From Serendipita indica DSM 11827 (lineage: Eukaryota > Basidiomycota > Agaricomycetes > Sebacinales > Serendipitaceae): a stretch of DNA of 64,000 nucleotides. Made by a program: the position numbers and the translations under genes. The notes beneath the pieces are model-generated. The model was not told the origin of the DNA. It saw only the letters and a list, made by a program, of their open reading frames with translations, and did not search any database. The stretch covers positions 2,418,001 to 2,482,000 of the forward strand of contig CAJVGD010000001.1 of assembly GCA_910890315.1 (NCBI GenBank). Reading direction: 5' to 3'. Below are positions 1 through 47,282 of the stretch, one piece after another (the stretch's first letter is position 1; the number at the start of each line of letters is the position of its first letter).

Positions 1-749
1 GGCTAGCTAGTGCCGACGAGCTGGCGTCCGGGTTAATGACGTTATCTTCAAGAGAACGCTGTAGAGATCCCACTGGACCAAGTGGAGGGAATGAATATTC
101 GTCAATTACTGTCAAGCTTGGGAGAGGCTTGAAGACCCGTCGACGAAGCCGGTCACCCAGGGAACTACGTGCGTGGGTCAGTCGGCGGAGGGGATAATGG
201 CGTGAGACGGTTAGGAGCAGCTTCGAGCGCATGGACCGATACTGCTGGAGATGCGTATTGGGACGTAGTTATCATCATTCCCGGCGATGCGCTCCAGTTG
301 CTGTATGGAGACGCATTGACAGAACGAAGCAGTGTGTAGCGGAGACACCTGCTGGGATGTTGTGATCATGAGGCTAGGTGAGGCCGAGTAGTTACTCCAC
401 GGCGAAGCGTGAGCGATATACGGAGAGGCGTTGACAGATGGCGTATGGTGTGGAGCCGACTGATGAAAATTTGTCCCTATGAGACCGGGGAAGCCCAGTA
501 GTTGTTCCATAAGGGGTCCCGTGCGACATACGGGGAGGCGCCGTGTTCTACAAGCAGTTGCGAACCGAGAGGTGAGCGTCCTGGATCACTATCATGATTG
601 AGCGAGTCCCTTGACCAGTAATCAGAATGATTGAATCCATTATGGTCGTAGATGCAAATGCAGCGATGAACGCACAAGCAAAGAGACGTCAAAATCTCAG
701 AACCACTCACCTCCCCTGTATTATAGTTACAAGGACAACGAAATACCAT
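1..749 (-). pseudogene. F-box-like gene copy, 5' leader part only, runs off left edge
   Basis: Reading from 749 downwards, the translation matches the first ~150 residues of the F-box-like paralogue at 1763-3658. It carries repeated A-S-P-W-S-N-Y-S-A-S-P blocks, one LMITTSQQVSP motif (about 345-420) and a second, MMITTSQYASP, in another frame (about 250-300). Near 100-180 a third frame resumes the family sequence (SSLGDRL...FKPLPSL). At least two frame changes separate the pieces, so no continuous product is possible as written. The segment at 480-600 repeats the A-S-P/W-N-Y block a third time, as an internal tandem duplication. The F-box and LRR-like parts would lie left of the window. An assembly error could explain one break but hardly all. 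Confidence 0.7.
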
Positions 750-1762
750 GTCGAGTACACTTCACCACACTAAAAGTCCGGCCATTCACGTTCAGTCCTC
801 ACACCCTCTCCAAAGTTTAGGCTATTCTCCTCGCTAGGGTCTTCCGGCTCTTACCAAGTCGTAGCTCAACATCGTCGTGCCATCAAATCAAATATAAAGA
901 AAACGAGCTGTCACGAGACGGTACCGTTCAAGGATCAGCCTCTGGGAGAAGTGGGCGAGCGTGGGTCCCTATGAGATTGTGGACATGTACAACTTGACAC
1001 GGAACGCACTATATCTCAAAACAGCGCGTGAAATGGGTCAACAGTGAAAGACACGTCTCATAGAGGACCCATTTAGTATCCCGAAGTGGTCCACTCCCTC
1101 CCTAGTGATACTCTCTTTGCCTGACGTTGGACCAAGGACTTTGATGCACCAGAGTCCGCGTCAAAGGACACGTCCGCCGCTGCCGTCGCGCCTACAGGGT
1201 TCCTGTACCTCTACCACGCCGAACTTGTCCAATGCGAATTACACCGGTGCCGCGTTTTGGCGCTACAGTGCGCTCATTGTCCTCTCGCGCACGACTGATT
1301 GGTATTTCCAGCGCAGCGGAGTCCGCAAAAGGACGCCATTCTCTCCAATGGCACGTCGAATCATCCGAGCGGCAAGGTGAATTCGGGTATCGTCTACGGT
1401 GCGTCCTTCCTTGTCGGTCGAAACTAGATTGAGTGTTAATGGGTTTGCAGGCGATTATTAGTTCGTCACCAAGGCAGGGAATATGCTCCTCAACTTGGGT
1501 CTAGCGAGCTGCTGAAGTTTGGTTTCCTGTCGATTCATCATGGGCATTTTGTAGTTACGGCCAACCTACGACGTGACGCTCTTGGCATCGTTGGGTGAAC
1601 TTTTGGTGTACTAACGAATTGCATTACGTACTAATAGGGGAATTCTCAGAATGTAAACGCAATATCGTGATTCATTGCCAGGTCCTATTACCACAAAAAT
1701 GAAATAAAAAAACAGAAAACGTAGTGCCCTGTAGCGGCACTATCATCTCGCCAATTTCCAAA
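750..1762. other. Spacer with duplicated promoter sequence
   Basis: No gene is supported here. About 790-870 resembles about 3790-3870, and about 1125-1190 resembles about 4130-4195 (shared core ctttgatg, then caaaggac). Both pairs are upstream DNA of neighbouring minus-strand F-box-like copies, so the tandem duplication unit included the 5' flank. The open frames at 1105-1432 fall in this duplicated flank and are not conserved in the other copy. Confidence 0.5.
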
Positions 1763-3658
1763 CTACACCCCGTCGGAACGTCTCAGTGGACGGCCAAAGT
1801 ACTTGAGCGAAATAGTACTGAGCTGCTCTGCATTCTCGTGACCCCTGAGCTGAATATGTTGCTTGTAGATGTACTCCCAGCTGAGAGTTGGGCCAGGCTG
1901 TCGCGCATGAGCTGTATTTGAGCCTTGGTGTCGTCCCCGAACAGGGTGAGGCCTGTTTGTTCGTTTGTGGATGAGAAAGAGGAATAGAACCGCTGGAATA
2001 GAAAACTGAGGATGGCAGCAATAAAGGTACTCGGTGCCTTAATAACTTTGATTTTCCTTGCGTTTGTAAAGAGTTCAATGATTGTGGCCTTGAGGAGGGA
2101 TGGGGGGAGTCTAAGAGGAGAATCAGCCCGGAGTGACATAATGAATGTACTTAGTTTCTGTAGGGAGAGGTTGGAGACATAAGCGAATACCGCGGTGCTG
2201 TCGACCCCCGGGATGAGCTCGAGTGTATGGAGGCAAGGGAGGCAAAGAGGGACGACGAGCGTGGCGAGTGAACCAATGGTAAGTTTCTGTAAATTTGCCC
2301 AGGTTTCGATTTCTGTGAGATCACCTAAAATCTCCATCCGCCCTGCTCGCTGCCATCTTCTGTGTATAGGATTCCACTTGAAAAACTCTTCGAGATGAAG
2401 CCTGTATGTGTTTTCAAGGTTTGGAATCCGTGGAAGTAAGCAGCTGCATAGATAGATTGTCCTCAGTGAACTACTAAAGCCTCGGAATATTGGTGGAAGC
2501 TGTGACGTATTGAATCGGGCAAGGTCAGTGTCACCCATTTGATATTTTCAAGCTCGAGCGATTCGAGGGATCGCAGGTTCAGGTCGAATATCCCGTTGAG
2601 GTGCGAGCTAGCCAAAGCTCTGGCATTACCGTCGAGGCGGTGGATGATTGTGAAAACGTTGGGCGACATCCGTAGACGAGAGTTTTTATACCTACAACGC
2701 GAAGGCGTCCGGTGAACTGCCGTAATCAACGAATCAGCATCCCGGAGATGCGCCATAATACCTCCCGTCTTGATTTGAGAAAATCGGCCAGCACCGGTTC
2801 TCGACGACTTGGGCGAGAGGATAGTTCGTTGGTCTTGGATACTGATATCGGTCAGGAATTGAGCTCGAGTATAATGCCTGTGAATCCGCGATATCCACGT
2901 TTTGACGTCTTGCCCGTCAATAAGAGTGATATAGACCTTGGCCCATATACTCTCATGGCGCTCACCTGTATCTCTCCAGTGCCTGCATACTTGAATTAGT
3001 GTTTCAGGGGTCGCGAATGGCGAACCACTGGTGTCTCGCAGCAAACTCTCAGCGTAGAAGTCGAATATTCGCTGAAGAATGCTCTGAGAGAGAGTGCTAG
3101 CACGTCGCAAGCAGGCGCTGGAAACATCCGAAATGCTTCCATCAATCTGTCTGTCACGTCCATCCGGCGTTGAAGAGTTGTTTCCACCAAGGTGGAGCTG
3201 TCGACATCATTCCCGTTTGGTGAGAGTATTGGAGATTCGTCAACGGCAGTCAATCCTGGGAGAGGTTTTGAGGCCGGTCGAGCAGCGCCTGTGTGCAAGT
3301 CTACTGGCGGAGCAGCAAGCATTGCTGTGCGCTTGGGAGTGGATCGAAGAGGAGAATTAAAAGGGATTGCTGGGGATGCATGTTGGGATGTAGTTATCAT
3401 CATCCCCGGCGATACACTCCAGTTGCTGTACGGAGAGGCTGCGGTAGAACCAAATGATTTGCATTGAGGGGACGCGTGCTGTGAAGTTGTGACCATGAGG
3501 TCAGGAGAAGCCGAGTAGTTGCTCCATGGCGAAGCGTGCGTAGCATTCGGCGAGACGCTATATTCTACACGCAGTCGAGGGCCCCAAGGTAATGCTACTG
3601 GGTCGTTATCGTAGCCCCCTGATTCTTCTTGAGTCTGGGTGGTGATCATTTGATCCAT
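1763..3658 (-). pseudogene. F-box-like/LRR-like protein gene, frame-broken
   Basis: The first in-frame ATG is at 3658 (MDQMITTQ). The leader holds two copies of the shared motif, LMVTTSQHASP and MMITTSQHASP, each after an A-S-P-[WY]-S-N block. The F-box (TLSQSILQRIFDFYAESL) and the R-H-W region follow, then the block ending SLELEN and an LRR-like C-terminal half with WNPIHRRWQ. Compared with the intact paralogues at 4565-6493 and 11537-13435, the frame changes near 3100 (just before the F-box), near 2535 (after LELENIKW) and near 1880 (before the ENAEQLSTISLKYF tail). There are no splice consensus sites at these places, so I read them as indels. If the protein were made it would be a putative SCF substrate adaptor. 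Confidence 0.75.
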
Positions 3659-4564: not shown

Positions 4565-6493
4565 CTATTTTCTCGGCTGAATGATGAAAGAGGGGGCCAT
4601 CAGAATAATAATTGTGGCAGCGAGGGGAATCAGCCACCAGCCGACTACACCATCACAAACCACCTCTGGCACTTTTTGTCGTGTTGATGTGACTATCTTC
4701 GGACATGTCAACTGCCGATGTTCGAAGTATACATCAAAGTGCTCATAAGCTATATTCCAAAGCTGCATTCCGCTCTCATCGCCGGTGAGTGATATTTGTA
4801 TGTCACTTCGGTTGTCACGTAGAAGGAGGTGCCTTGGTTTTTCTGTCGAGGGCGGAGAACGAGAGGAATGCTCGTATAGGAAGAGAAGAACGCTGATGAG
4901 GATGGTTCTCGGTGCTGATATGACCTTAATCCTCGTTGCACTTGAGAAGAAACCGTTAGTAGCATACAGGAGCGGCCTTTGGGTAGATAGCAAGCATCGA
5001 GGGGCGAAATGGGTAAAACACGTAGCTGGCGATGAGATGACCAGGGTATGCAAACTCTCCAAGCAGAGGCTGGAGATGTACGAGAGTACCATGGATTCAT
5101 CTTCCTGCCGTACTATGACTTCCAATGTATGGAGGGACGGCAGACAGAAAGGAACGAGATTTGCGGTGAGCGGACCGATAGTGAAAGTTTGTAGATAGGT
5201 CCAAACTTTCAGCTCCACAACGTCAAACAAGTCAATTTTCTGGCCGACTGGCTCCCATTTATGGCGTAGTGGATTCCAGTGAAAGCAATGTTCGAGATGC
5301 AGCTCATAAGGCTTGTCGAGGTCTGGGACCTTTGGAAGGAAGCAGTTGTAGAGGCGGAGCATCTTAAATGAGCTGCCAAGCCCTTTGAATATGTGTGGAA
5401 GTTTGGGGTAATAATTGGAATCTCCGACTGCCGGTTTGACCCATCCAACATTTTCTAGCTCGAGAGATTCGAGAAAATGAAGCTCAGTGGGAAATATTCT
5501 GTTGAGGTAAGAGCTGGCTATCACTTTCGCATCGCCATCAAGTAAGTGAATCATCTCGGGAAAGAACGGCGGCATCACCAGCCGAAAGCTCTTATGTCTA
5601 CAGTCGGACATGATTGTATAGAGCTCTGTAGTTAAGGAGACTATATCGTTGAGACGGGCTAGAAAACCCCCTCGAGGTTTAGGCTGGTCAAGAGTAGTAC
5701 CAGCGTTCAGTAACCAGTACAAGCTGCGATCTCGTTGGTCTTGAATGCTGATATGCACCGGGAACGAAGCTCGAATAGGCCATCTCCTGATTCGCGCTTT
5801 CCACTTTTCGATGTCATGCATGTTAGTAAGAGTGATGTATACCTTGGACCATATATTCTCATAATCCTGCGCTACGCTTTTCCAGTGGCTACAGATGTGC
5901 AGTAGTGTCTCAAGGGCTGCAAATGGTGAAGAGCTTGCGTCTCGTTGCAAGTCGGCAGCGTAGAAAAAAAATACTCGCTGAAGAATGTCTCGAGGGAGGG
6001 TGTCAGCATGAGATAAACGCCTAGCGGCGATATTAGCTACTCCAATCACTTCACCAAGCTGCTTGTCAAGACTCTTCTCCGCGGAGGAATGGACGTCCGG
6101 TATCGTCTCAAAGCCCGGGACGCGATTTGAACGTGAAATAGACACCGGTGATTCGATAATCATACCCAATCTTTGAGGAGATTCAGCAAATGGATCGGTG
6201 GTGAGGGAAGCACGCATTCGAAGGTCGACATCCGGTGCGGCGGACATCAGAGTGCGGTCAGGGGCTACTTTCAGTTGATGATCGGGTAATGCAGGAGATG
6301 CTTGTTGGGATGAGGTAATCATCAAACTCATGGGTGATGCAGACTGCTCGCTTAAAGCCGAGCTACTTGTCACAGTGAGCGAACCTCTGGCTGATGGATT
6401 GATTGAATGGTTAGGATGGCAACTTTGGACGATGGAGCCCACATCAGCAGTTTCCATGGCCGCTGAGAGGTGGGCGGGTTTAAGTTGGCACAT
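4565..6493 (-). CDS. F-box-like/LRR-like protein with unusual hydrophobic C-terminus
   Basis: Single-exon ORF of 642 aa. Residues 51-67 carry the shared leader motif (SLMITSSQQASP). The F-box-like domain is at about 165-216 (LPRDILQRVFFFYA ... CSHW ... IWSKVYITL), a form common in Agaricomycete F-box-like proteins. The region from about 330 onward has short LRR-like repeats (FLESLELENVGW, LPSLHTLEVI, LESLHTLVIS). F-box proteins of this type are expected to bridge SKP1 to a substrate; neither partner is visible here. Unlike its paralogues, the last ~30 residues form a hydrophobic stretch (GWWLIPLAATIIILMAP) that could be a C-terminal membrane anchor. Start: ATG 6493 is the first in frame, but a Met at 6457 (MET) is conserved in all intact copies and may be the real start. 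A good donor upstream near 6657 suggests a leader intron. Confidence 0.8.
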   Translation of the reverse strand: MCQLKPAHLSAAMETADVGSIVQSCHPNHSINPSARGSLTVTSSSALSEQSASPMSLMITSSQQASPALPDHQLKVAPDRTLMSAAPDVDLRMRASLTTDPFAESPQRLGMIIESPVSISRSNRVPGFETIPDVHSSAEKSLDKQLGEVIGVANIAARRLSHADTLPRDILQRVFFFYAADLQRDASSSPFAALETLLHICSHWKSVAQDYENIWSKVYITLTNMHDIEKWKARIRRWPIRASFPVHISIQDQRDRSLYWLLNAGTTLDQPKPRGGFLARLNDIVSLTTELYTIMSDCRHKSFRLVMPPFFPEMIHLLDGDAKVIASSYLNRIFPTELHFLESLELENVGWVKPAVGDSNYYPKLPHIFKGLGSSFKMLRLYNCFLPKVPDLDKPYELHLEHCFHWNPLRHKWEPVGQKIDLFDVVELKVWTYLQTFTIGPLTANLVPFCLPSLHTLEVIVRQEDESMVLSYISSLCLESLHTLVISSPATCFTHFAPRCLLSTQRPLLYATNGFFSSATRIKVISAPRTILISVLLFLYEHSSRSPPSTEKPRHLLLRDNRSDIQISLTGDESGMQLWNIAYEHFDVYFEHRQLTCPKIVTSTRQKVPEVVCDGVVGWWLIPLAATIIILMAPSFIIQPRK

Positions 6494-6861: not shown

Positions 6862-8679
6862 TCACCACGAGGGTTGAACAAGTGAAACAAAAAAGTGACG
6901 AAGTGCAATAACTTCGAGCTGCTCCATGCTCTCATCACCCGTGAGCGATATTTGCAACTTGTGCGGATGCTCATACAGAGTAAGTTGCTTCGGTGTGTCT
7001 GTAGGTGGCCCAGAGTGGTAGTTGCGTTCGTATAGGAAACGCAGAATGCTGATGAGAACCGTTCGCGGTGCTTCGATGTTCATAATTCTTTTAGCCTTTG
7101 TAAAAAGCGCAGTCGTTCCATTCTTGATGTGTTCAGGCTGCATAGATATGGGGATTTGAGGAGTGAAAGGGGTATCTGGCCATGATATAATAAGTGTATG
7201 TAGATTCTCTAGTGAGAGGTTAGTGATATGTGAGAGAACTGTGGACTCGTGGCCCCACCACGCTATGATCTCAAGCGTATGGAGGGACGGAGTATATAAC
7301 GGGACAAGGTACTTGGTGAGTGGACCAATAGTTAGCTTCTGTAGATCCGTACAGATTCGCATCTCTAGGTCATGCGAACCGTTTATCTGACCGACTGGCT
7401 CCCATTGTCGGCGTAGCGAATTCCAGTGAAAACAATGTTCAAGTTGAAGCTCATATGGGTTACTGGGATACAGAAGCTTCGGGGTGAAGCAGTTGTACAA
7501 GCGAAGTGTCTTGAGCGAACGGTGGGGTATTCGGAAGATGGGTGGAAGTTGGGAGTAGCTGAAAGTTGAGATCCAACCTATATTTTCGAGCTCCAGTGAT
7601 TCCAGAAACTGCTGATCAAGGCAGAATATGCGGTTGAGATACGAGCTGGCGAGCTCTCTCGCACTACCACCCTGAAGTTGGTCAATGATCGCGACAAAGT
7701 TGGGTGGCATGGCGAGACGAAAGCTCCTACACACGCAACGGGACGCGGTACTATGTAGCTCCATTATCAAAGAGACCAAATCATTGAGCTGGGCGATAAA
7801 TTGTTGAGTCTTGAACTGACGGTAAGGCTCGGCACCGGCGTTGAGTGGTTGGTACAAACTGAGATCTCGTTGGTCTTGGATACTGATATCCATTAGAGAC
7901 TGAGTGCGCTCGCGATATCGCCTAATTCGTGCCATCCACTTTCCAACGTCCTGCTTGTTGGTAAGTGTGACATAGACCTTGGCCCACATATGCTCATAGC
8001 CTTCAGCCACCTTTCTCCAGTGCCTACAAACATGCAGGAGCGTCTCAAGAGTCGCAAAGGGTGAGTGACTTGCATCTCGCCGCAGGTTGTTGGCATAGAA
8101 GTCGAATATTCGCTGGAGAATGTCGCGGGAAAGCGTATTAGCATGTTTCGAATGGATATTCGGTACCTGTACGACTGAAACTATAGTGTCAATCTGCTCA
8201 TCACGACCCTCTGGCCTGGAAGAGTCGGCGACCATGGACGAGAAGCGATTGGTACTACCTCGGAGCAGACTGGATACGGCAGATTCTGGAGCCATTCTCG
8301 ATGATCGGTGACGACGAGTGACCGGGCGTGGGATAGCGAGCGAGGTGCGTGTGTGTAACCCGATTTGTGGGGCAGTAAATATCGTCGTGCGGTCAAAAGC
8401 AACTTCGAGAGGATGAACTGAGGGGGCTGGAGAGGCTTGCTGGGAAGTGGTGATCAGCAAGCCCATGGATGACGCCGACGACCCAGAAAACGCGCTCAAG
8501 CGTGAACTACTGGTTATAGTGGAGGAAGCTGAGTTTGCTGCACGAGCTCTTCGAGGTCTAGTAAGGAGGTTTTGGGCAACGAGCAGCATAGAGGGGTGTT
8601 CCATCGCCACTCTGAAATGGACGCGGTTCAAGTTGTTGGCGCCGATACCGCTCAGCTTCGATTGAGGACTGACGTTCAA
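6862..8679 (-). CDS. F-box-like/LRR-like protein
   Basis: Intact single-exon ORF of 605 aa. The shared leader motif is at 66-84 (SSMGLLITTSQQASP), followed by the family block LEVAFDRTTIFTAPQIGLHTRTSL. The F-box-like domain is at about 181-235 (NTLSRDILQRIFDFYANNL, VCRHWRKVAEGYEHMW). The C-terminal half has LRR-like repeats, including FLESLELENIGW, YTPSLHTLEIIAWWGHES and LENLHTLIISWPD, and the tail LQISLTGDES. Residues 26-28 (MEH) match the conserved internal Met of the family, so the protein may be 25 residues shorter. Inferred role: a substrate-recognition subunit of an SCF-type ubiquitin ligase. No catalytic residues are expected. The substrate is unknown. Confidence 0.82.
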   Translation of the reverse strand: MNVSPQSKLSGIGANNLNRVHFRVAMEHPSMLLVAQNLLTRPRRARAANSASSTITSSSRLSAFSGSSASSMGLLITTSQQASPAPSVHPLEVAFDRTTIFTAPQIGLHTRTSLAIPRPVTRRHRSSRMAPESAVSSLLRGSTNRFSSMVADSSRPEGRDEQIDTIVSVVQVPNIHSKHANTLSRDILQRIFDFYANNLRRDASHSPFATLETLLHVCRHWRKVAEGYEHMWAKVYVTLTNKQDVGKWMARIRRYRERTQSLMDISIQDQRDLSLYQPLNAGAEPYRQFKTQQFIAQLNDLVSLIMELHSTASRCVCRSFRLAMPPNFVAIIDQLQGGSARELASSYLNRIFCLDQQFLESLELENIGWISTFSYSQLPPIFRIPHRSLKTLRLYNCFTPKLLYPSNPYELQLEHCFHWNSLRRQWEPVGQINGSHDLEMRICTDLQKLTIGPLTKYLVPLYTPSLHTLEIIAWWGHESTVLSHITNLSLENLHTLIISWPDTPFTPQIPISMQPEHIKNGTTALFTKAKRIMNIEAPRTVLISILRFLYERNYHSGPPTDTPKQLTLYEHPHKLQISLTGDESMEQLEVIALRHFFVSLVQPSW

Positions 8680-9435: not shown

Positions 9436-11364
9436 CTAAGGACGCCATAATGCCGCAAGGATAGACCCTAGATCCAGGCTAGTACCTCGTATTGATCGCC
9501 TCCTCGATACATGAGCCGTCGGGTATGTCGAGTGCCAATAGGGGAGGGAGAGATCGAAATACCCAAGCGCGATATCTTGAAGCTGCCTTTTGGTCTCGTC
9601 ACCCGTGAGTGAGATTCGTAGTCCCCTGCCGGTGCTCACATAGAGTAAGATCCTGTGGCTTTTCCGTCGATGATGAAGGAGAGGAGCGCTCGTATAGGAA
9701 GCGGAGCATGCTGATGAGCACTGTCTTCGGCGCTTCGATGACCTTGATCTTCTTTGCGTTTGAAAAGAATGCGGCAGTTGCATCCACGGTTGGTTCAGGT
9801 TGGATAGGTGACAGGAGATGGGGGGTGAGATGGGCGAAACGAATGTGTGGCGATGATATAATAAGCGTATGTAGATTGCCTAAAGGTATATTCAAATATG
9901 TGAAAGTGTTGTCGATTCATGTCCCCACCACGCTATGATCTCTAACGTATGGAGGGATGCAACGTGGAAAGGGGCAATACGTGCGGTGAGAGGACCGATA
10001 GTGAGCTTCTGTAAATCCATCCAGACTTTTACTTCATCAAGGTCATTCAGGGTGCTTATCTGGCCGACTGACTCCCATTGTTTGTGCGATGGGTTCCACT
10101 GAAAGCAGTGTTCGAGATAGAGCTCGCACGGTTTGTCGAGATTTGGGATCTTGGGGAGGAAGCAGTTGTAGAGACGAAGTACCTTGAGCGGGCTGCTAAG
10201 TCCTTGGAATATAGGTGGAAGTTGCTGGTAGTTGAATTTGCGTGCTGTGGGCGTGATCCATGCAACATTTTCTAGCTCAAGCGATTCAAGGAATCGCAGA
10301 TCAAGGTGAAATATCCTGTTGAGTAACGAGCTAGCTAATAACCGCGCATCGTCATCTAGTTGTTCAACGATTTCGACAAAGCTGGGTGGCATGGATAGCC
10401 GAAAGCCCTTATACCTGCAACGTGAGATAATACTATGAAGCTCGGTGGTCAGTAAAGCGATATCCTTAAGATGGGCAAGAAACCCTCGGGTCTTGAGTTG
10501 ACGGTAGAGGTCAAGATCAGCGCCGGTGTTCAATATTCTGGGGGAAGTAAGATCTCGCTGGTCCTGGATACTGATGTCTGTGAGGAGTTGGGCTCGAGCA
10601 AAACATTTCTTGATCCGCGGTATCCATCTCCCAACGTCGTGCTCGTCGATAAGAGTGATATACACCTTGGTCCATATACTCTCGTGACATTCTGCTGCAT
10701 CTTTCCAGCATTTGCAGACTTGGAGTAATGTTTCGGGAGTTGCGAATGGCGAACGACTGGTGTCTTGCCGCAGGCTGTCCGCATAGAAGTCGAATATTCG
10801 CTGAAGAATGCTTTGAGGAAGAGTATTAACAGGGTTTAAATATCTTTTGGGGGCTGATGGGACCCAAGGGAATCGATAAAGTCCACCCGACGTCCCAGGG
10901 ATAGTGTCCGCGAAAGTGGAGCGATTGGCACCATTCGAAGGCGATTGTAGTACCGGATATCCGTTAATAACTCTCCATCGTGTTAGAGGTCTCGAGAGAG
11001 GTCGGCCAAACGGGTCACCGAGAGAAGTGCGTGTGTGCAGGCCGACCTGCGGAGCAGGAAACATGGCAGTGCGGTCAGGAACGACTTCAAGAGGGTGAAT
11101 AGATGGTGTTGGAGACGCATGTTGGGATGTGGTGACCATTAGACCCACGGAGGATCCAGACCATACGCTCCGGGCTGACGAACTATTCGTCCCAGCGAAT
11201 GATCTCCCGGCTGACGAAGCATCAGAGCGCCTAGAATAGGAACGTTGGGTGACAACGGCCATAGAGGAGTAATCCATGGCTATCGCCGAATACGGGCAGA
11301 TCCAAGTTGGCGCAGGCTCAAAATGTCCTCCGCGAGGATATGAGACAAGAATGATATTGTACAT
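9436..11364 (-). pseudogene. F-box-like/LRR-like protein gene, two frame breaks
   Basis: ATG at 11364 opens a 490-aa frame with the leader motif at about 70-85 (SSVGLMVTTSQHASP). The conserved internal Met is residue 30 (MDY). The F-box is TLPQSILQRIFDFYADSL, followed by VCKCWKDAAECHESIW and LRR-like repeats up to EIIAWWGHESTTLSHI. The family sequence then continues in another frame from about 9893 (NIPLGNLHTLIISSPH) and in a third from about 9625 (LRISLTGDET ... GTSLDLGSILAALWRP). Each change is one base relative to the paralogues and lacks splice signals. Frame 1 alone would give a protein short of the last ~140 residues, which might still carry an F-box. With so few changes, a recent pseudogene or assembly errors are both possible. 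Confidence 0.7.
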
Positions 11365-11536: not shown

Positions 11537-13435
11537 TCAGATAGGTGACATAATGTCTCCAAAAATAGGTTCGAGATCTACGCTAGTCCCTCGATTCACT
11601 CGTCGAGTGGCTATGCCCGTCATCGGAGACGTAGAGTGCCAATAAGGGAGGGTGAGATGAAAGTGCCGAAGCGCAATATCCTTGAGCTGCTTGGCACTCT
11701 CATCGCCGGTGAGCGATATTCGTAGTTTGTGTGCTTTTTCATATAAAATTAGATGTCTTGTTTCGTTTCTGAATGGTGAAAGGGTGGAGGCGTGCTCGTG
11801 TAAAAGGCTGAGAATACTGACGAGGATCGTTCTCGGCGCCTCGATGACTTTAACCACCCTTGCATTTGCAAACAAGTCGGTGATTCCGTTCTTGATCGTG
11901 TCAAGCTGGGTAGAAGTAGGAAGCGGAGGAGAAAGATGGGCAAAACGAGTGTCTGGCCAGGATATAATGAGTGTATGTAGACTCTCTAAGGAGAGTGTAG
12001 ATATGTGGGTGAGTGCTATGTGCTCATGACCCCACCAAACTATGATCTCGAATGTACGAAGGGATGGGAGATAGAGAGGTACGATGGGCGCGGTGAGTGG
12101 GCCGATAGTGAGCGTTTGTAGATCTGTCCAGACTTGCATTTCTATGAGATCGTTCGAGTCATTTCTCTGACCAGCTGTTTCCCATTGTTTGCGTGATCCA
12201 TTCCAGTGAGAGCAATATTCGAGGTGAAGCCTGTGTGGTCCATCGAGCATGGGAAGGGTTGGAAGATGGCAATTGTACAGATCAAGCACTTTGATCGAGG
12301 TGATAAACCATTGAAATATCGGTGGAAGTTGGGAATGGGCGAAGCTACCATCAGTAGGTGATATCCATCCGACATTCTCGAGCTCGAGTGACTCGAGAAA
12401 TAGCATCTTGAGCGGGAATATACTGTTGAGGTGCGAACAGGCCACGTCTTTGGCGTCACCATCGAGTTGGTTGATGACTTCGGGAAAGTTGGACGGCATG
12501 GCGAGGCGAAAGCTCCTCCACCTGAGCGTACCCCAGCCATTATCCATGTTTCCTTCCAGTTCTGTTATCAAAGAGACCAGATCATTGAGGTGAGCGAGAA
12601 ATGCTGCGGGGTTCGAAAGCCCAGAAGGGTCGGTGGGAGGTTCGCACGAGCTGAGATCTCTTCCGTCTCGGATGCTGATATCCATAAAAGTGTGTGCGCT
12701 GATACGTCCTCGTCGTCTCCTGATCCGAGTTAACCATCTTCCGACGTCGCGTTGATTAAACAGGACGATGTGAAATTTGGCCCACATAGCCCCATGCTGC
12801 TCAGCAACGTCTCTCCAGCGACTACATACAAGAAGCAGTGTCTCGAGGCTTGCGAATGGCAAGTAATTCACATCTAGCCACAGGTTCTCGGCATAAAAGT
12901 CGAATATTCGCACGAGAATGTCTCGAGGAAGGGTATTAGTGTGATTTGAGTGCTTGACTGGGACATTGGCCCCATCAAACGGCTCTTCTGACACTGATGA
13001 CTGTTCAGACTCGGACTCAGAGTCCGGAGCCTTGAGTCTCTTCGCATGATCCCCCGCGATATTAGACACTGGAGACTCTGAAATAGCTCTCAGTTTGCGG
13101 TGAAGTCGAACCAATGGGCTATTGAAGGAGGCGCGGGTACGCAGGCCAATATGCGAGGCGGCATACATTGCGGCACGGGTGGTGCCCGCTTTAAGGGGGT
13201 GATCCAGAGAGGAAGGTGATGCATGTTGCGAAGTGGTGATCATCAGACTCATTGGCGATGCCGAGAACGCGCTTCCTCCCGAACTGCTCGTTGCGGCAGA
13301 TGGACTCGCTAGTGATGCATCTGTTGGATGGCGAGGATGCGGAGGCCTCGCAGCGAAGCCTAAGACTATATCTTCCATGGCCACCGCCGAGGGTGGACAG
13401 GTCCAAGTCCGACAACGACGGTTCGGGAAGGCCAA
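11537..13435 (-). CDS. F-box-like/LRR-like protein with acidic linker
   Basis: Intact single-exon ORF of 632 aa. The shared leader motif is at 58-74 (SASPMSLMITTSQHASP). A linker holding an acidic Ser/Glu tract (DSESESEQSSVSEE) precedes the F-box-like domain (TLPRDILVRIFDFYAENL ... VCSRWRDVAEQHGAMWAKF). The C-terminal half has LRR-like repeats (FLESLELENVGW, LPSLRTFEIIVWWGHEH, LESLHTLIISWPD) and ends with the family tail LRISLTGDESAKQLKDIALRHF. Residue 20 is the conserved internal Met (MED), an alternative start. The acidic tract is absent from the neighbours. Likely an SCF-type adaptor; the substrate is unknown. Confidence 0.83.
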   Translation of the reverse strand: MAFPNRRCRTWTCPPSAVAMEDIVLGFAARPPHPRHPTDASLASPSAATSSSGGSAFSASPMSLMITTSQHASPSSLDHPLKAGTTRAAMYAASHIGLRTRASFNSPLVRLHRKLRAISESPVSNIAGDHAKRLKAPDSESESEQSSVSEEPFDGANVPVKHSNHTNTLPRDILVRIFDFYAENLWLDVNYLPFASLETLLLVCSRWRDVAEQHGAMWAKFHIVLFNQRDVGRWLTRIRRRRGRISAHTFMDISIRDGRDLSSCEPPTDPSGLSNPAAFLAHLNDLVSLITELEGNMDNGWGTLRWRSFRLAMPSNFPEVINQLDGDAKDVACSHLNSIFPLKMLFLESLELENVGWISPTDGSFAHSQLPPIFQWFITSIKVLDLYNCHLPTLPMLDGPHRLHLEYCSHWNGSRKQWETAGQRNDSNDLIEMQVWTDLQTLTIGPLTAPIVPLYLPSLRTFEIIVWWGHEHIALTHISTLSLESLHTLIISWPDTRFAHLSPPLPTSTQLDTIKNGITDLFANARVVKVIEAPRTILVSILSLLHEHASTLSPFRNETRHLILYEKAHKLRISLTGDESAKQLKDIALRHFHLTLPYWHSTSPMTGIATRRVNRGTSVDLEPIFGDIMSPI

Positions 13436-13713: not shown

Positions 13714-13992
13714 TTAATTAATATCCACCTTTGGAGGAACAGAGTCGAAAGAATATACAGATGCTACTAGAGAGGCGTGTTGGGATGTAGTTATCATTAG
13801 ACCCGGTAATGCACTCCAACTGCTGTGAGGAGAGGAGCTGACAGAGCCGAATGGTGCACAGTATGGAGATGCCTGCTGTGATGTTTTTACAATGAGATCA
13901 GAAGAAGTTGAATAAAGGCTATAAGTTGAAGCTTGTGCAAGATATGGCCCCTCGCTGTACGTCGCAGGTGGATGCAGTGCGTGAGACAACAA
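13714..13992 (-). pseudogene. Motif-only fragment of the F-box-like leader
   Basis: A 92-aa frame contains the double-motif leader of the 1763-3658 copy (SSDLIVKTSQQASPYCAPFGSV, then LPGLMITTSQHAS) and stops at 13714 with no F-box behind it. Upstream on the same strand, a different frame at 13887-14170 reads like real protein (LNITQFNISQLSSEFTVSS, then SIVQEVLKDQVAAVASER), but I found no clean splice joining it to the motif. It could be a solo leader remnant at the edge of the array, or a 3' exon captured by the neighbouring NB-ARC gene. Confidence 0.5.
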
Positions 13993-28830: not shown

Positions 28831-28844
28831 GTGATAACCATGAA

Positions 28845-30190: not shown

Positions 30191-31042
30191 ATGAACACGG
30201 CAAGGATATCTAGAAGGAGTCCCACATGCGATAAAGAGGAGCAGGATACGCTACAAGCCTCAAATGGTCGATATGCATCACCCTGGAGCCATGAATCATC
30301 CATATCAATGGATCTAATGATCACGATATCCCAATGTGCATCGCCGCGTCTAAGCAGCAGTCGATCAATATCTCCATGGAGTCGTGAGTAGATGCCAGTG
30401 ACAATTGTGATGCTCATCTTAAATTAAATGCTTCATTAGATGAAGAAATGCTGGAAGAAGACGACAGAATGCATATTTCCCTTCCCGTTCCCAACCGACA
30501 GCATCCCCCATCGACACCTCTCACAGCGTGCAACTTGAGGTCCATTTCATTCGACGAGAGCGAGAACCTATCTCTCCTCTTCAGTTCCCAGCAGGAATAT
30601 AGACAGTCGAGACCACGTCAAGAACAGGCTCCGTCGGTGGAAATGAACAGTGTCGATGATACCAAGATACCATCAAGGTCTACGACACTACGCAAACCCC
30701 GAAGTAAAGCGATCAGTCCTCAACAATCTCTCCAAACCAGTCCAAACAAACGTGCGCGAGAAGAGGTGGACGAAAATGACACTCCGCGAAAGCGCAGATC
30801 ACGAGAAAATTCATCTATTAACACCTCTACAATTGAACCAAAGCCCCCACGGCTAATCCGAGCGGAGCACTTTGGGAATACGCGATTCAAATGTCGCCTC
30901 TGGTACGACATGCTCTCATACTCTGCCTGTTTTCTGAATCTATTTTAGTCCATTCTCCTACCGTGATAAACAAGGACTCAGCCGTCACTGGCGGACTCAT
31001 GCGCTCGACGAATTTGCATGCCCTGTGGCGACATCCTCATGA
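30191..31042 (+). CDS. Leader-motif C2H2 protein, 249 aa, last finger truncated
   Basis: Exons: 30191-30383, 30440-30902 and 30949-31042. ATG 30191 (MNTARIS) is chosen because sister genes start at a similar distance before the motif; the frame is open back to 30008. The leader has YASPWSHESS, then MDLMITISQCASP, the same module as in the F-box-like proteins. The middle is basic and Ser-rich (NKRAREEVDENDTPRKRR, a plausible nuclear signal). The first finger is RFKCRLC...LSRHWRTHALDEFACP, with the intron splitting the second Cys codon (TG|T). The second finger breaks off: compared with 44568-45817 four bases are missing after TTTGCATGCCC, so the frame stops at 31042, and the rest (CGDILMNDQSLRIHRH) is readable in another frame. 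Possibly a recent pseudogene. Confidence 0.6.
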
Positions 31043-33493: not shown

Positions 33494-34546
33494 ATGGAGA
33501 CCGAAAATGCGATGAAAAACACGCACATCGACAGTCACGAATCACCGTGGACTACGAGTAGGCAGTCGACACCCTGGAGGGAGGGATCTACCTTCTCGAT
33601 GGGCCTCATGATTACACCTTCTCAGTGTGGTTCCCCAAATACCAACCCACCTGTGTATCGGAGCACTCTCCTACAGCAGCAGGAGGCTGTCATCCTCCCC
33701 CCGGGACGCCTTCCAATGGTTTATCCGGCTGCTGTCATAGCGGAGCCCTCTATATCTCAAAGAGATTCCGCTGGATCCCCACGCTCACAGCAGTCAACGT
33801 TGATAAGAGTGGAGCTTGAACTAGACCAAGACATCCGGGAGAAAGTTCGCCAATTAGACTGGCGTCAATTTAGAATATACCAGTCACTAGAGCATGATAA
33901 AGTGGCGCAATTAGCGACACTTTCTAGCTTTTTGCTAGATCTGCCAAAACAGTCTTTAGCCCCCCAGGTGAGTCCTTCAGCCAAGATGAATAGGAAGGTA
34001 TCTGGACCAGATCTGCCAATTTGAATGTTTATCTCTTCCAGTCAGCTGAACACTGATCTACTGTTCATTTCCTATCAGGTGCCGACTGGTGATTTAGATT
34101 TGCCCCAAATCGTCGACTCAACTTCTCAACAAACCTCTCCCTCTCTGGCTCCGTATCCAATGCGACCAAAATCTCATGCAGACTTGCTGTTGCTCGACAA
34201 TGCGTTCACAGCACTTGGGTTCTTCCCTGACCCGAAACTACGGAGGCTCCTCGGCCTCATCCTGTCTTCGCAGTTCTATAAAGACGACAACTTGGAGCCA
34301 GTCTTGGGTACAAAACAGGGAGATGCCCTCATTGAGCAAGCGGGATTTGATCAGCTTCAGACGAGATTTCCGGGAACTGCGATCTCGGAATCGGCCTCAA
34401 TCTACTTGCTATTTGCCGATAATTACAAGTGTCTACTTTGTGGAAGACGATTGAAACAGAGGCAGGAGGTCCTGGGCCATGTTCGCTCGCATGTTGGCCA
34501 CCAGCCATATCACTGTGGCCATATACGATGCTGTCATACACTGTGA
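33494..34546 (+). CDS. Leader-motif protein with regulator-type C-terminal module, 313 aa
   Basis: Exons: 33494-33967 and 34079-34546 (phase-0 intron, acceptor cctatcag). It starts METENAMKNT; the leader reads SPWTTSRQSTPWREGS, then MGLMITPSQCGSP. The second exon carries the C-terminal module of the large regulator (LLLDNAFTALGFFPDPKLRRLLGLIL, SSQFYKDDNLEPVLG) and the first finger (KCLLCGRRL...HVRSHVGHQPYHC), ending CCHTL. The parent continues with two more fingers here; a degraded remnant (DLLYEHIVQSD) is visible at about 34608-34640 but is not clearly spliced in. So a leader module has been combined with a regulator finger module. Function is unknown; DNA binding with one remaining finger is doubtful. 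Confidence 0.65.
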
Positions 34547-35081: not shown

Positions 35082-35834
35082 ATGGAGACAGAGGGTCCCA
35101 CAAAATATCCAGAATATGATGAATCTGGTCGATTGCTTAATAGTAGGCCCCCTTCGTCGTTAAGGGAAGGGTCGGTATACTCGATGGGTCTTATGATCAC
35201 GACATCTCAGTGCGGCTCTCCGCAAACAAGAAACAGTGACATAAGTTCAAAAGAAGACTGGACACGGCGACCATACTCCGCTCAATATGGGGGAGTGATG
35301 GCGGTCCCTTCAGGCCACCTTCAATCCGACTTATCATCTATACCTGAGGATACAGAAGTGATCCAGATCACACTTTCGGATCGATCTTACGCCTTACTCA
35401 ATCAATCGCAATTGAAAACGAACGTTCTGTTGGACAAGGAAACCTGGGAGCTGATTCGTCACCTTGAATGGTCTGAGCTTCAGAGCTACTTATCCCTCAG
35501 ACCGAATCAACTCAATCAAGGTCTGCACCTGCACCGTAGCTATGATCATCTCCGCGGGCAGTTCACCCTAGCGCAGCTACCGGCTGCCAACGCAATATTC
35601 AAATACATGACGGACCATCCGTTTACACCCATACCGAATGAGTACATTACCCCAGAACTTGCGGAGGTCAATCGCGGTCATGGGCGGTGTTTGATTGACG
35701 AGTGTGCCACACGGACATGGCCAAAACGCGCCGACTACGTCGAGAATCATATTAGGAGTAAGCACTTTGAGAGTCCAGTCTTACCTCTGTATAATTCAGT
35801 ACGCTTCTCTTCTATTGCCAACGTAACGTATTGA
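35082..35834 (+). CDS. Leader-motif protein fused to the CLIG-type finger domain, 250 aa
   Basis: It starts METEGPTKYPEYDESG. The leader motif is MGLMITTSQCGSP at about 35-48. The middle has TNVLLDKETWELIRHLEWSE. The C-terminal part is the domain shared with the 43-47 and 55-59 kb genes: AIFKYMTDHPFTPIPNEYIT, ELAEVNRGHGRCLIDEC, ENHIRSKHFE, so the Cys pair and both His are kept. After KHFE the sequence departs from the family, and the frame ends at 35834. A possible intron (gtacgcttct ... ctgattag) leads to a weak copy of the next finger (REIDLKIYFQTHG) that lacks proper ligands. So finger 1 is intact and the later fingers have decayed. Confidence 0.65.
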   Translation: METEGPTKYPEYDESGRLLNSRPPSSLREGSVYSMGLMITTSQCGSPQTRNSDISSKEDWTRRPYSAQYGGVMAVPSGHLQSDLSSIPEDTEVIQITLSDRSYALLNQSQLKTNVLLDKETWELIRHLEWSELQSYLSLRPNQLNQGLHLHRSYDHLRGQFTLAQLPAANAIFKYMTDHPFTPIPNEYITPELAEVNRGHGRCLIDECATRTWPKRADYVENHIRSKHFESPVLPLYNSVRFSSIANVTY

Positions 35835-39542: not shown

Positions 39543-39549
39543 TTTATAC
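39543..39549 (-). promoter_or_regulatory. TATA-like box for the glycine-rich membrane protein
   Basis: The minus strand reads tgtataaagt about 155 nt upstream of the ATG at 39388. This supports the downstream ATG as start, because the open frame above it lies in the expected leader. Confidence 0.4.
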
Positions 39550-43110: not shown

Positions 43111-44273
43111 CTACTTGCGTGGCCAGGTGATCGTTCGGGGGAGAAGATGACGCGGTTTGGCGGTAATGGTCTTCTTCGATTGGGTCAAGTGACTGTGTAT
43201 CTGCAGTGATTGGTCGCTAATGAGAATGTCGCCACAGGTCGGGCACGCAAACTCGTCGAGCGCGTGAGTCCGCCAGTGGCGGCCGAATCCATCTTGATGA
43301 TGAACATAAGATAATGAGCTGAAATAGAGTCAGAAGGAGGCAGAGTGTACGAGCATGACGCGCCAGAGGCGACATTTGAACGGCGCACTCTTAAAGTGTT
43401 CCTCTCGGATATGCTCACACAGAAGATCAATGCATTGCCATGATCGATCTTTGTCTAATCCATCTTTCGTAATATCGCTTATAGGCGTTAAATGGGCATT
43501 CTTGTAGGCGATGAGTTTATATCCACATTGTCCAATAAGACACTGTCCATACTCTCCGCATATCTCCGCAATCTCCCGTGTAATGAGGGAAAGAGGGAGA
43601 AGTGTATCTGGATTATCGTTGATGAGCCGTTGGATCAGGCGAGCAGCTGGAAGTTGCTCTGGAGTAAACAGGGTGTGCGACGTCGGATGTCCATGGGCCA
43701 GTCGTGGATCGAGGGATAGGGACTCGAAAGCCGCTTCTACTTTTCATAATCCTTGGTACCGACGTCCATGTCCACCTCTAATGAGTTGGGACATGTCAGT
43801 GTCTCTGCGAGGGAAAAGGTGTCTGCATTGGCCCGTTCCTGTGCGTCATAGATTATGTTCATGATATCCAAGGTCGAATTATCCTCTTCTCCGGCTGTCG
43901 GTTCGATTGGGTCCTCTCGTGCATTAGGCCAAACTGCAGGCGTTGGAGAGCCCGGTCTCGAGATATAGGCTATTATACGGTCGTTAGGAGGAAATAAAGT
44001 TATCAAGGAGCGTCTATGGTCGTTGTCGGTAGAGGCAAGGTTGCCCTCTACCCATAAGTCAAGTTGTGCGAGCTCGGGACTCGCAGAAGGTGAAGCTTGC
44101 TGAGAGCTAGTGATGAAAAGGTTTGACGAAACTGAGGAACTGATTGTAGACGTCGTATGGGATTGGGCCCAACTAGCTCGCTTCGAAGACAGCATCTGCT
44201 GGAGCGCACCAAGTCGTGAGGATACAGACGGCGAATGGAGTAACGAGCGTTCTGTACTTGGAGGTTCAGTCAT
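43111..44273 (-). pseudogene. Leader-motif C2H2 gene, copy 1 of 3, one frame break
   Basis: ATG 44273 (MTEPPSTERS) matches the starts of its two sisters. The leader motif is SSNLFITSSQQASPSASPEL, nearly identical in its core to the F-box-like LMITSSQQASP. The frame ends after VGTKDYEK, but one base over (near 43738) the family sequence resumes: VEAAFESLSLDP, LPAARLIQRLINDNPD, EICGEYGQCLIGQCG, CEHIREEHFK, APFKC. The intron 43319-43363 starts with GC instead of GT and splits the Cys codon (TG|C). The last exon (43111-43318) has HWRTHALDEFACPTCGDILI and ends TWPRK. One frameshift only, so recent decay or an assembly error. Confidence 0.65.
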
Positions 44274-44567: not shown

Positions 44568-45817
44568 TTACTTGCGCGGCCGGGATCCCAATCGGGGGAA
44601 AAGACGAAACAGTTTAGACGTCCTAGTCCCTTTTGAACTATTTGAATGACGGTGAACCCGCAGCGATACATCGCTAATGAGAATGTCGCCACAGGTCGGG
44701 CACGCAAACTCGCCGACCGCATGCGTCCGCCAGTGGCGACTGAGCTCGTCTTGACTCATGTACGACGCTGGACTGGGGAGGTGGTCAGAAAAAGAGAGAG
44801 TATATAGTCCATAACGCACCAGAGGCGGCACCTGAATAGCATTTGTTCAAAGTGTCGATCCCGGATGTGACCACAAAGGATATCAATCCGTCTCCGTGAT
44901 GAATCCTTTACCAATTCCTCGTCCGTGACGTCATTCGTAGATGTCAAACAGGCAATCTTGTACGTGATACGTCCAAGGCCGCACTTTCCGATAAGACACC
45001 ATCCATGTTCTCCGTAAATCTCTGCAATCTCCTTGGTGATGAGAAAAAGAGGTAAAGACGTGTCAGGATTAGCTTGGATGAACCGTTGGATATGGCGAGC
45101 AGCTGGCAGCTGCGTCGGCGTAAACGAGTTTGTCACGAGGGCATCCAGAGAGCGCTTTGTCGTATCGGGGAACCTAAGCCTCCCAATCGTCTTTGTGCGC
45201 CACGTCGGTCCTCGAATCAACCCACTATTCCCGAGCGGCGGTGGCTCGAGCGAAAGGACCTCGAGTACTGGCCTAAACTCTTTGCGATCCTCAGCAGTAA
45301 CGTTCATCTCCGTCTCGAGAGAGTTGGGGCACGTCAGCGTCTCGGTGAGTGAAAGCGCGTCTGTGCTGGCCGGTCTTCGTCTACTATACGCTGTCGCCGA
45401 GGTATCGAGGCGAGACTCGTGGTCCACTTGCTCTTCGTTCCCCGTCGATTCCATGGGGGATTTTAGAGATGGCGAAGACCGATGGATTACTGACCCCGGT
45501 CTCACAGCCCGAATCGTCGTCTGGTCATCAACAGACTGGATAGTTACTAGCGAACACCCCCCAACACTCGCCACGCAAGCAGGCCTGCTTTCTCTGCCCG
45601 AGCATTGGGTCAGCCGACCCGCCAGCTCGGCACTACCAGCTGGCGTACACGGCTGAGAGGTGCCGATATAAATGTCTGGAGAAGGCGATGAACTAACGTT
45701 GGATGTCCTGTTAGAGGGCACTCGACAGAGCCGCCTCAAAGACCAAGACCTCCTGGTTCCCGACGACGTAGACGAGGAGCGGAAGAGTGAACAAGTATTG
45801 CTAGGAAATTCAGCCAT
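44568..45817 (-). CDS. Leader-motif C2H2 protein, copy 2 of 3, 400 aa
   Basis: Exons: 44820-45817 and 44568-44772; the frame closes exactly (1203 nt). It starts MAEFPSNTCSLFRSSSTSSG. The leader motif is diverged (SPDIYIGTSQPCTPAGSAEL). Next come LTETLTCPNSLETEMNV and the domain FTPTQLPAARHIQRFIQANP, LITKEIAEIYGEHGWCLIGKC, then LCGHIRDRHFEQMLFRCRLC. The intron splits the second Cys codon of that finger (TG|T). The second exon gives YMSQDELSRHWRTHAVGEF, then ACPTCGDILISDVSLRVHRH and a basic tail. Three fingers in all: an atypical C-x4-C...H-x4-H plus two classical ones. A DNA-binding role is inferred. Confidence 0.83.
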
Positions 45818-46064
45818 ATTACTGCTGCATGAGCGTGTCCGTTGTTTAAAGAAAGTAGGAGGAAGAAGGCGGAATCAAGACGGATGCCACCGTTTGACGC
45901 GGTACCGAGAATTAAGGGCTCGAGGTGGGGGCCGCCGTCCAAGCAATAGAAAAGTACGTAATCATGATCGATGTTGTACACAAAGTAAAATTAAGGTTGT
46001 CTACTTTAGAATAAGTGTGTCATCCGTCCAATCTAGCAATCCACAAGACGTTACAGGGACTTGA

Positions 46065-47282
46065 CTATTTGCGAGGTACTGTACGAACGAGAAGACGACG
46101 TAATTTGGATGTGATAGTCTTCTTCGCATGCTTTGCAAGCTGATGCTGCTGTAGTACTGCCTCATCGACAAAGGTATCTTCACAAACCGGACACGCAAAC
46201 TCGCCGACTGGATGAGTCTGCGAGTGGCGGTCGAGTTCGCCTTGGTTGATATATGATGCTGGGCTATAAGATGATTAGACAGGTGCAAACTATTCGAGCC
46301 GAGCGTACCATTGGGAGCATTTGAACGGCATCTGTTCAAAATGTCGGTCTCGAATGTGACCACAGAGAACATCAATCCTCTTGCGTGATTGATCTCTCTC
46401 CAATTCCTCGTCCGTAACGTGATAGGTAGACGTCAAACGAGCAATCTTATACGAGATGCGTTCGAGGCCGCACTTTCCAATAAGACACCAGCCATATTCT
46501 CCATAGATTTCTGCAATCTCCTTTGTGATGAGAAAAAGAGGAAGAGGTGTGTCGGGGTTGTCTTGGATGAACCGTTGAATGGAGCGTGCGGCCGGGAGCT
46601 GCGCGGGCGTAAATGCATTGGTGACGAGGGCATAGAGCGCACGCGTCGTCGGCTCGGGGAGCGCAAGAGTTGAAATTGTTGACGTGCGCAGCGTCGGATA
46701 GCGACTCTGCCGAGGGAGTCTAGACGGCGGTGGGTAGAGGGCCAGAAGTTCTAGTGCTTTTGCTAGTGCTTCTTGGTCCTCGGGCTCGACGTTTATCTCC
46801 GCCTCGAGCGAATTCCGCCGTGTCAGCGTCTCTTTGAGAGAGAGGCCGTCGTCGTTCATTATCTTTGGTTGGTGTGTCATTGTCAGCGTCGATCTGCTCG
46901 TCATTGCCTCTTCTGTGATGGGCGACTCTAGCGGTCTCTCCACCAGAGTCACCCGCGGTCGCCAAAGTGTCTCTGTTAGCGAGCGTCGTCGTGGAATATA
47001 GACATTTGTCTCGTTATCAAGAGATGCATCTTCGGCATTTACCACGTTTGTGCGGTTACTCCGTCGACGCAGAAGATCTCTCAGCTCGGGACTTCCAGAG
47101 GGTGTGCCCTGCTGAGAGCTGGTGATGCCTAGATAGTCCGAAGGAGATGAGCTGACGGCAGATGTTCTGCTTGAATGCGCCCAGCTCGCGCGTTTCGACC
47201 GTGAGCGGACGAGTGCGCTCAACGGCGACGATGTAGATGGTGAACGTGAAAGTGAGGGATTATTACTAAGGAGTGTAGTCAT
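46065..47282 (-). CDS. Leader-motif C2H2 protein, copy 3 of 3, 390 aa
   Basis: Exons: 46309-47282 and 46065-46263; the frame closes exactly (1173 nt). It starts MTTLLSNNPSLSRSPSTSSP. The leader motif is SPSDYLGITSSQQGTPSGSPEL. The domain is FTPAQLPAARSIQRFIQDNP, LITKEIAEIYGEYGWCLIGKC, LCGHIRDRHFEQMPFKC. The intron splits a Cys codon (TG|C). The second exon reads YINQGELDRHSQTHPVGEF, then ACPVCEDTFVDEAVLQQHQL and a basic tail (KHAKKTITSKLRRLLVRTV). The order and strand match its two neighbours, so the three arose by tandem duplication. The upstream DNA keeps a block (ttggcgcggcac) resembling that of copy 1. Confidence 0.84.

What the first reader, a model, noticed from the sequence alone, without database searches (positions are those of the whole stretch)
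211..47282. One N-terminal motif shared by F-box-like and zinc-finger proteins
Consensus S-x-x-[LM]-[MLF]-[IV]-T-[TS]-S-Q-x-[AG]-S-P, often after A-S-P-W-S, is present in all the F-box-like copies (0-14 kb) and in seven zinc-finger loci (30191, 31340, 33494, 35082 on +; 44273, 45817, 47282 on -). It is always within about the first 90 residues, and the proteins share nothing else that I can see. Seen directly. Inferred: a mobile leader exon encoding a docking, degron or localisation signal; the S-Q and S-P sites could be phosphorylated together. It would tie putative ubiquitin-ligase adaptors to putative transcription factors through one partner.
Basis: partly seen in the sequence, partly recalled or inferred. 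Interest (0 to 1): 0.8.

Follow-up and report, generated by a model that had tools for sequence, protein, structure and literature searches.

The report
Short motif shared by unrelated proteins
A fungus, most likely a plant-root symbiont, carries the same short protein tag near the front of several otherwise unrelated protein families (ubiquitin-ligase adaptors, zinc-finger proteins and one unknown family), which suggests, but does not show, that one unknown partner handles them all.

Summary
A 14-residue motif, [ST]-x-x-[LM]-x-[IV]-T-[TS]-S-Q-x-[AG]-[ST]-P, occurs 17 times in the window: 10 copies in the F-box-like array (two in a fragment) and one in each of the seven zinc-finger loci named. 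I curated 33 copies at 27 loci of the genome, including three tandem genes of a Pfam-less family on another contig. A strict DNA pattern gives 22 genome hits against 0 reversed. Profiles trained on one class recover much of the others; masking the motif removes the cross-class similarity. Between F-box and other classes the codons differ as much as codon usage predicts, so the peptide is conserved and no recent exon copy is seen. The motif lies inside long coding exons, so 'mobile leader exon' is not supported. S-Q (33 of 33) and [ST]-P (32 of 33) fit general kinase sites; no recalled specific motif class fits more than 4 of 33. Best reading: an undescribed short linear docking or phospho-switch motif with a common partner; partner and function are inferred. 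The organism is most likely Serendipita indica (plus recall).

The parts
246..381 (-). two motif copies (340-381 and 246-287) in different frames, at the start of a probably degenerate F-box-like gene that continues outside the window
3371..3508 (-). two in-frame motif copies (3467-3508, 3371-3412), 32 residues apart, in F-box-like gene 1783-3658 (three exons predicted)
6293..6334 (-). motif copy PMSLMITSSQQASP in F-box-like gene 4565-6493
   Evidence: PF12937 17.3 bits, below cut-off 24.3
8428..8469 (-). motif copy SMGLLITTSQQASP in F-box-like gene 6862-8604
   Evidence: PF12937 16.3 bits, below cut-off
11110..11151 (-). motif copy SVGLMVTTSQHASP in F-box-like gene 9599-11364 (two exons predicted)
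   Evidence: PF12937 22.8 bits, below cut-off
13214..13255 (-). motif copy PMSLMITTSQHASP in F-box-like gene 11537-13378
   Evidence: PF12937 34.5 bits, cut-off 24.3
13768..13905 (-). two motif copies (13864-13905, 13768-13809) in an orphan frame of 103 residues, one with L in place of the final P
30305..30346 (+). motif copy SMDLMITISQCASP preceded by ASPWS, zinc-finger gene 30008-30948 (two exons predicted; finger tail probably continues)
31442..31483 (+). motif copy STGLMITTSQCASP in open frame 31340-31630; the zinc-finger A region at about 32.3-32.8 kb is probably the same gene (join not shown)
33596..33637 (+). motif copy SMGLMITPSQCGSP, zinc-finger A gene 33494-34546 (two exons predicted)
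35181..35222 (+). motif copy SMGLMITTSQCGSP, zinc-finger B gene 35082-35834
44088..44129 (-). motif copy SSNLFITSSQQASP, zinc-finger B gene starting at 44273; domain region in a later exon (43.4-43.7 kb)
45641..45682 (-). motif copy SPDIYIGTSQPCTP, zinc-finger B gene 44756-45817
47100..47141 (-). motif copy SDYLGITSSQQGTP, zinc-finger B gene 46065-47282 (two exons predicted); C2H2 fingers over the Pfam cut-off in the spliced model

Best explanation
The feature is an undescribed short linear motif in the Ser-rich, probably disordered N-termini of at least three unrelated protein classes: F-box-like adaptors, zinc-finger proteins with two kinds of finger module, and an unannotated family. Shown: it is real, it is conserved at the amino-acid level, it is the only similarity found between the classes, and it is repeated two or three times in some F-box-like genes. 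Inferred: the hydrophobic core ([LM]-x-[IV]) docks as a short strand on one common partner, and the S-Q and [ST]-P sites are phosphorylated to switch that docking on or off; the S-x-x-x-[ST]-P spacing would also fit a GSK3-type kinase primed by a proline-directed kinase (recalled consensus). The partner would then set the stability or location of both ligase adaptors and putative transcription factors.
For: 22 strict genome hits vs 0 reversed. A profile trained on the 3 C2-contig copies alone ranks 12 of 17 F-box copies, 4 of 4 and 4 of 4 zinc-finger copies of two groups and 1 of 5 zinc-finger B copies before any unlisted one of 228,476 14-mers; the other four single-class profiles recover between 1 of 5 and all of each other class. 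Cross-class BLAST pairs go from 45 to 0 at E<=0.001 when the motif is masked; three shuffled sets gave 1, 1, 0. Same-codon rate of F-box with other classes 0.24-0.27 vs 0.26-0.28 expected (29 of the 33 copies used). Within classes the motif is 74, 90 and 71% identical against 43, 61 and 25% for the remainder (8 F-box, 3 zinc-finger A, 3 C2 models). S-Q in 33 of 33, [ST]-P in 32 of 33, S-x-x-x-[ST]-P in 32 of 33. pLDDT under 50 around the motif in both models. In-frame tandem copies 32-38 residues apart in F-box-like genes.
Against: No partner, phosphorylation or function was tested. Low pLDDT comes from 7-row alignments and is weak evidence of disorder. In zinc-finger B genes the motif is hardly better kept than the folded part (51 vs 49%), and its core is loosest there. 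Eight regions holding paralogues of the F-box and finger classes show no motif (best scores 3.0-7.9), so the domains do not need it. Four of ten class pairs share codons more than expected (C2 family with the two zinc-finger groups 0.40 and 0.42 vs 0.28; the 30-35 kb group with zinc-finger A 0.35 and with B 0.33 vs 0.27-0.28), which leaves room for shared descent. The genome has at least 150 F-box-like matches (150 of 372 candidates scored) and the strict pattern hits only this subfamily.
Confidence: 0.5

Rival explanations
1. On origin, not excluding the best explanation: common descent. An ancestral N-terminal segment was joined to different C-terminal domains by gene fusion or unequal recombination in the cluster, and everything but the motif has diverged since.
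For: F-box-like and many zinc-finger carriers lie in one region of contig C1, 2.406-2.490 Mb. Genes at 33.5 and 35.1 kb share about their first 140-150 residues (46 of 151 identical, E=4e-13) but end in different finger modules. ASPWS plus the motif recurs in F-box-like genes and in the 30.3 kb zinc-finger gene, and four of ten class pairs share codons above expectation.
Against: With the motif masked no cross-class similarity remains; between F-box and other classes the only DNA matches are 37 and 40 nt at the motif itself; F-box codons are at expectation against the other classes.
Confidence: 0.4
2. On origin, not excluding the best explanation: convergence. The motif arose separately in each class because each needs the same partner.
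For: Only the motif is shared. That short linear motifs can arise de novo is reviewed in PMC4654906 (title and start of abstract seen in the listing).
Against: Fourteen positions with several near-invariant columns, plus the ASPWS extension in two classes, is long for pure convergence.
Confidence: 0.35
3. A calcineurin-docking (PxIxIT-type) site, as in NFAT and Crz1 (recalled).
For: 4 of 33 copies fit the strict expression; shuffled maximum 2.
Against: 29 of 33 fail it, and the most conserved part (S-Q-x-x-[ST]-P) lies outside it.
Confidence: 0.07
4. A DNA- or RNA-level element (repeat, regulatory or mobile) that happens to be translated.
For: Many copies in one region.
Against: Synonymous codons vary while residues stay fixed.
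Confidence: 0.02
5. Chance similarity of Ser-rich N-termini.
For: The first 120 residues are 15-31% Ser+Thr.
Against: 23 of 25 models exceed all shuffles of their class; single-class profiles recover other classes.
Confidence: 0.01

Closest known systems
Short linear motifs in general (docking sites and degrons shared by unrelated proteins)
   Same: Short, outside folded domains, shared by unrelated proteins, sometimes repeated, conserved as an island
   Different: None of the 14 recalled non-kinase expressions tested fits more than 4 of 33 copies
PxIxIT calcineurin-docking motif (recalled)
   Same: Alternating hydrophobic residues followed by T, next to S-P sites
   Different: P at position 2 in only 13 of 33; the conserved S-Q-x-x-[ST]-P lies outside
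SPOP-binding consensus of MATH domains (recalled)
   Same: Hydrophobic-polar-[ST]-[ST] order in I-T-[TS]-S
   Different: Next residue is Q in 33 of 33; 0 of 33 fit
PIKK (S/T-Q), proline-directed (S/T-P) and GSK3 (S-x-x-x-pS) sites (recalled)
   Same: Present in 33, 32 and 32 of 33 copies
   Different: Very general consensuses; phosphorylation not tested
Crinkler-type effectors: one N-terminus, many C-terminal domains (recalled)
   Same: One front part, varied back parts
   Different: Shared part here is 14 residues; secretion signals were not looked for and no sequence comparison with Crinklers was made

Membership tests
Short linear motif | lies in a disordered region | tested here: inconclusive
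   pLDDT < 50 around the motif in the F-box and zinc-finger B models, but from 7-row alignments
Short linear motif | conserved island against its flanks | tested here: met
   74/90/71% vs flanks of 32-51% in three classes; zinc-finger B 51 vs 44 and 29%
Short linear motif | occurs in unrelated proteins | tested here: met
Short linear motif | binds a partner or is modified | not testable with these tools
   no interaction or phosphorylation data
F-box protein (SCF adaptor) | F-box domain | tested here: met
   PF12937 over cut-off in 1 of 4 full window copies tested (34.5 bits), below it in 3 (16.3-22.8)
F-box protein (SCF adaptor) | LRR-like substrate domain | tested here: inconclusive
   best Foldseek hits are LRR F-box proteins (COI1, MAX2, FBXL2), none at E <= 0.001
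F-box protein (SCF adaptor) | binds Skp1 | not testable with these tools
   -
C2H2 zinc-finger protein | C2H2 finger | tested here: met
   one zinc-finger B model (46065-47282): zf-C2H2 25.7 bits (cut-off 25.2), zf-C2H2_4 31.0 (27); the zinc-finger A model 33494-34546 reaches 15.1, below cut-off. Four Cys/His columns invariant in 7 zinc-finger B sequences
PxIxIT calcineurin-docking motif | P-x-[IVLF]-x-[IVLF]-hydrophilic | tested here: not met
   4 of 33
SPOP/MATH-binding degron | [AVP]-x-[ST]-[ST]-[ST] | tested here: not met
   0 of 33
Cdc4/FBW7 phosphodegron | hydrophobic-TP-x-x-[ST] | tested here: not met
   0 of 33
mobile leader exon | separate short first exon, recently copied | tested here: not met
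   motif inside long open frames shared with the domain region in eight genes; codons of F-box vs others at expectation

The most novel reading that the evidence does not exclude
The F-box-like proteins of the cluster themselves read this motif: the zinc-finger proteins and the C2-contig family are their substrates, and the copies at the F-box proteins' own N-termini act as built-in pseudosubstrates or autodegrons. The cluster would then encode a self-contained, lineage-specific circuit of ligase adaptors and transcription factors keyed by one peptide.
Probability: 0.1. Interest if true: 0.8.

Novelty: new member of a known kind. Interest (0 to 1): 0.52.

Why it matters
If the motif has one partner, a single peptide bait would connect a set of putative ubiquitin-ligase adaptors and putative regulators in a fungus (most likely a mutualistic root symbiont) to one signalling input, and the prediction can be tested directly with a 20-residue peptide. 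It is also a clean example of one orphan linear motif kept in otherwise unrelated paralogue families, useful for asking how such motifs spread.

Tried and rejected
Rejected: a recently copied leader exon. Shared promoter DNA: 6 cross-class against 62 within-class DNA matches at E<=0.01; the one long cross-class match (214 nt, 31 kb and 44 kb loci) lies, by position, in the finger-coding 3' ends of neighbouring genes (inferred), the others are 26-51 nt. Specific motif classes PxIxIT (two expressions), SPOP, FBW7, USP7, BRCT, FHA, PIP, LIR, LxCxE, EH1, SIM, TRAF2 and TRAF3: at most 4 of 33 (all expressions recalled, none from a database). Extra genome hits C5:633855 (60-residue frame), C2:970574 (stops close by) and C22:258072 (looks to my eye like a transposase) were judged chance. 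A one-mismatch genome pattern gave 70 hits vs 37 reversed; after 22 exact ones and 8 at loci already known, 40 remain, about what the control gives, so no further class shows at this sensitivity. No PDB chain matched a motif profile at E<=10. The string ITTSQ is in 1 paper of the library, an unrelated one; searches on the organism with F-box, zinc finger or gene family, and on shared motifs (listings seen only) showed nothing on this motif. Fold search of the zinc-finger B model gave no match at E<=0.001.

Limits and dropped rows. No relatives of this genome are held, so other species could not be tested. Gene models come from a small splice predictor that I wrote and are approximate; its model of the 0.2 kb gene starts after the motif, so that gene is not among the 25. 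The 33 copies are a curated list: left out were the degenerate C48:93462 (score 19.1) and rows scoring 13.2 and lower (C1:2486512, C48:71242, C2:221492). One search used 29 of the 33 (three F-box fragment copies and the weak copy at C1:2416168 left out). In one search the 45 kb model began after the motif; from then on I used the whole open frame. An earlier count gave 254 identical residues for the transporter; about 245 is the better reading.

Full report
Where the window is. It lies in a 24.7 Mb assembly in 55 contigs, at C1:2418001-2482000. A phosphate-transporter stretch of the same assembly is identical over about 245 consecutive residues to PDB chain 7sp5_A, 'Phosphate transporter'. That this entry is the Serendipita (Piriformospora) indica transporter is recalled; the call prints no organism. 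In the P. indica genome paper (PMC3192844; passages seen) F-box is among the expanded domains; 'zinc finger' does not occur in its main text, and the passages shown say nothing on this motif.

The observation. Outside the window the strict pattern adds F-box-like copies at C1:2.416 Mb and C48:95 kb, zinc-finger copies at C1:2.484-2.490 Mb and three on C2:217-223 kb. A relaxed pattern (30 hits vs 11 reversed) adds C1:2.4069 Mb and two zinc-finger B genes on C20. I use 33 copies at 27 loci: 17 F-box-like (9 genes, 2 fragments), 4 in zinc-finger genes at 30-35 kb, 4 at C1:2.484-2.490 Mb, 5 in zinc-finger B genes, 3 in the C2 family.

More than chance. The strict pattern gives 22 vs 0. A profile built from one class alone finds others at the top of 228,476 14-mers. 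Copies ranked before the first unlisted 14-mer, in the order F-box, 30-35 kb, 2.484-2.490 Mb, zinc-finger B, C2: trained on C2, 12 of 17, 4 of 4, 4 of 4, 1 of 5 (own 3 of 3); trained on F-box, own 17, 4 of 4, 3 of 4, 1 of 5, 1 of 3; trained on 30-35 kb, 15 of 17, own 4, 4 of 4, 2 of 5, 3 of 3; trained on 2.484-2.490 Mb, 14 of 17, 4 of 4, own 4, 2 of 5, 3 of 3; trained on zinc-finger B, 12 of 17, 3 of 4, 4 of 4, own 5, 3 of 3. Against shuffled N-termini, with training on the other classes, 23 of 25 gene models exceed the maximum of their class; the two that do not are on C48.

Nothing else is shared between classes. Cross-class BLAST of the N-terminal parts of 25 models gives 45 pairs at E<=0.001 and 178 at E<=0.1; with the motif masked 0 and 1; in three shuffled sets 1, 1, 0 and 13, 5, 8. 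Within the zinc-finger genes, those at 33.5 and 35.1 kb share about their first 140-150 residues but carry different finger modules.

The level of conservation. At identical residues F-box-like and other classes use the same codon at 0.24-0.27, where codon usage alone predicts 0.26-0.28. Four of the ten class pairs are higher than expected: C2 family with 30-35 kb 0.40 and with 2.484-2.490 Mb 0.42, 30-35 kb with 2.484-2.490 Mb 0.35 and with zinc-finger B 0.33 (29 of 33 copies). Residues are fixed while codons drift, so selection acts on the peptide. Within classes the motif is the best-kept stretch in F-box-like, 2.484-2.490 Mb and C2 genes, and about equal to the remainder in zinc-finger B. 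In seven F-box-like proteins the part before the F-box has seven invariant positions, five in the motif and one next to it.

The carriers. F-box-like: PF12937 over cut-off in one of four window copies and below it in three; the model has low confidence up to residue 148 and then resembles LRR F-box proteins weakly. The genome has at least 150 F-box-like matches (150 of 372 candidates scored); the strict motif is seen only in this subfamily. Zinc-finger B: one spliced model has C2H2 fingers over the Pfam cut-off. Zinc-finger A: a C2H2-like module below cut-off. C2 family: three tandem genes, two scanned, no Pfam match; a search with the first exon of one finds the other two and nothing else at E<=0.01. 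Regions with paralogues that lack the motif exist.

Exon structure. In F-box-like genes and several zinc-finger B genes motif and domain region share one open frame. In the zinc-finger A model at 33.5 kb the motif is in a 504-base first exon with 120 further residues after it. This speaks against a small mobile leader exon; models are predictions.

How it may work (inferred). Hydrophobic-x-[IV]-T-[TS]-S-Q-x-small-[ST]-P in a Ser-rich tail, repeated in frame two or three times at 32-38 residue spacing in some F-box-like genes, is what a docking peptide with phosphorylatable flanks looks like. S-Q in 33 of 33 and [ST]-P in 32 of 33 make a two-kinase switch plausible. Of 14 recalled specific expressions none fits more than 4 of 33. 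The partner is unknown. Old common descent and convergence are both open.

Verdict. A real, protein-level, orphan short linear motif across at least three unrelated classes; the leader-exon part is not supported; the function is untested.

Noticed in passing
window 33494-34546 and 35082-35834: Neighbouring genes share about their first 140-150 residues (46 of 151 identical) but end in different zinc-finger modules: a C-terminal exchange.
   Followed up: partly
window 13768-13905 (-): Orphan frame of 103 residues with two motif copies upstream of an intact F-box-like gene; one copy has lost the final proline: probably a gene remnant.
   Followed up: no
window 14054-15469 (-): Open frame that to my eye resembles an NB-ARC/NLR-type protein (recalled; Pfam scan gave no family), next to the F-box-like array.
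   Followed up: partly
C2:214001-224766 (L042, L043, L044, L070): Three tandem genes with the motif, two scanned without a Pfam match, sharing further stretches such as QSVES and LPSFxxxLQSVG: possibly a new regulator family.
   Followed up: partly
window 55087-58757 (-): Zinc-finger B paralogues without the motif; they carry a weak look-alike, SLLTAQ.
   Followed up: no
window 37000-37560 (+) and 62104-62628 (+): Ordinary flanking genes: DSBA-like thioredoxin domain and ribose-phosphate pyrophosphokinase N-terminal domain.
   Followed up: yes
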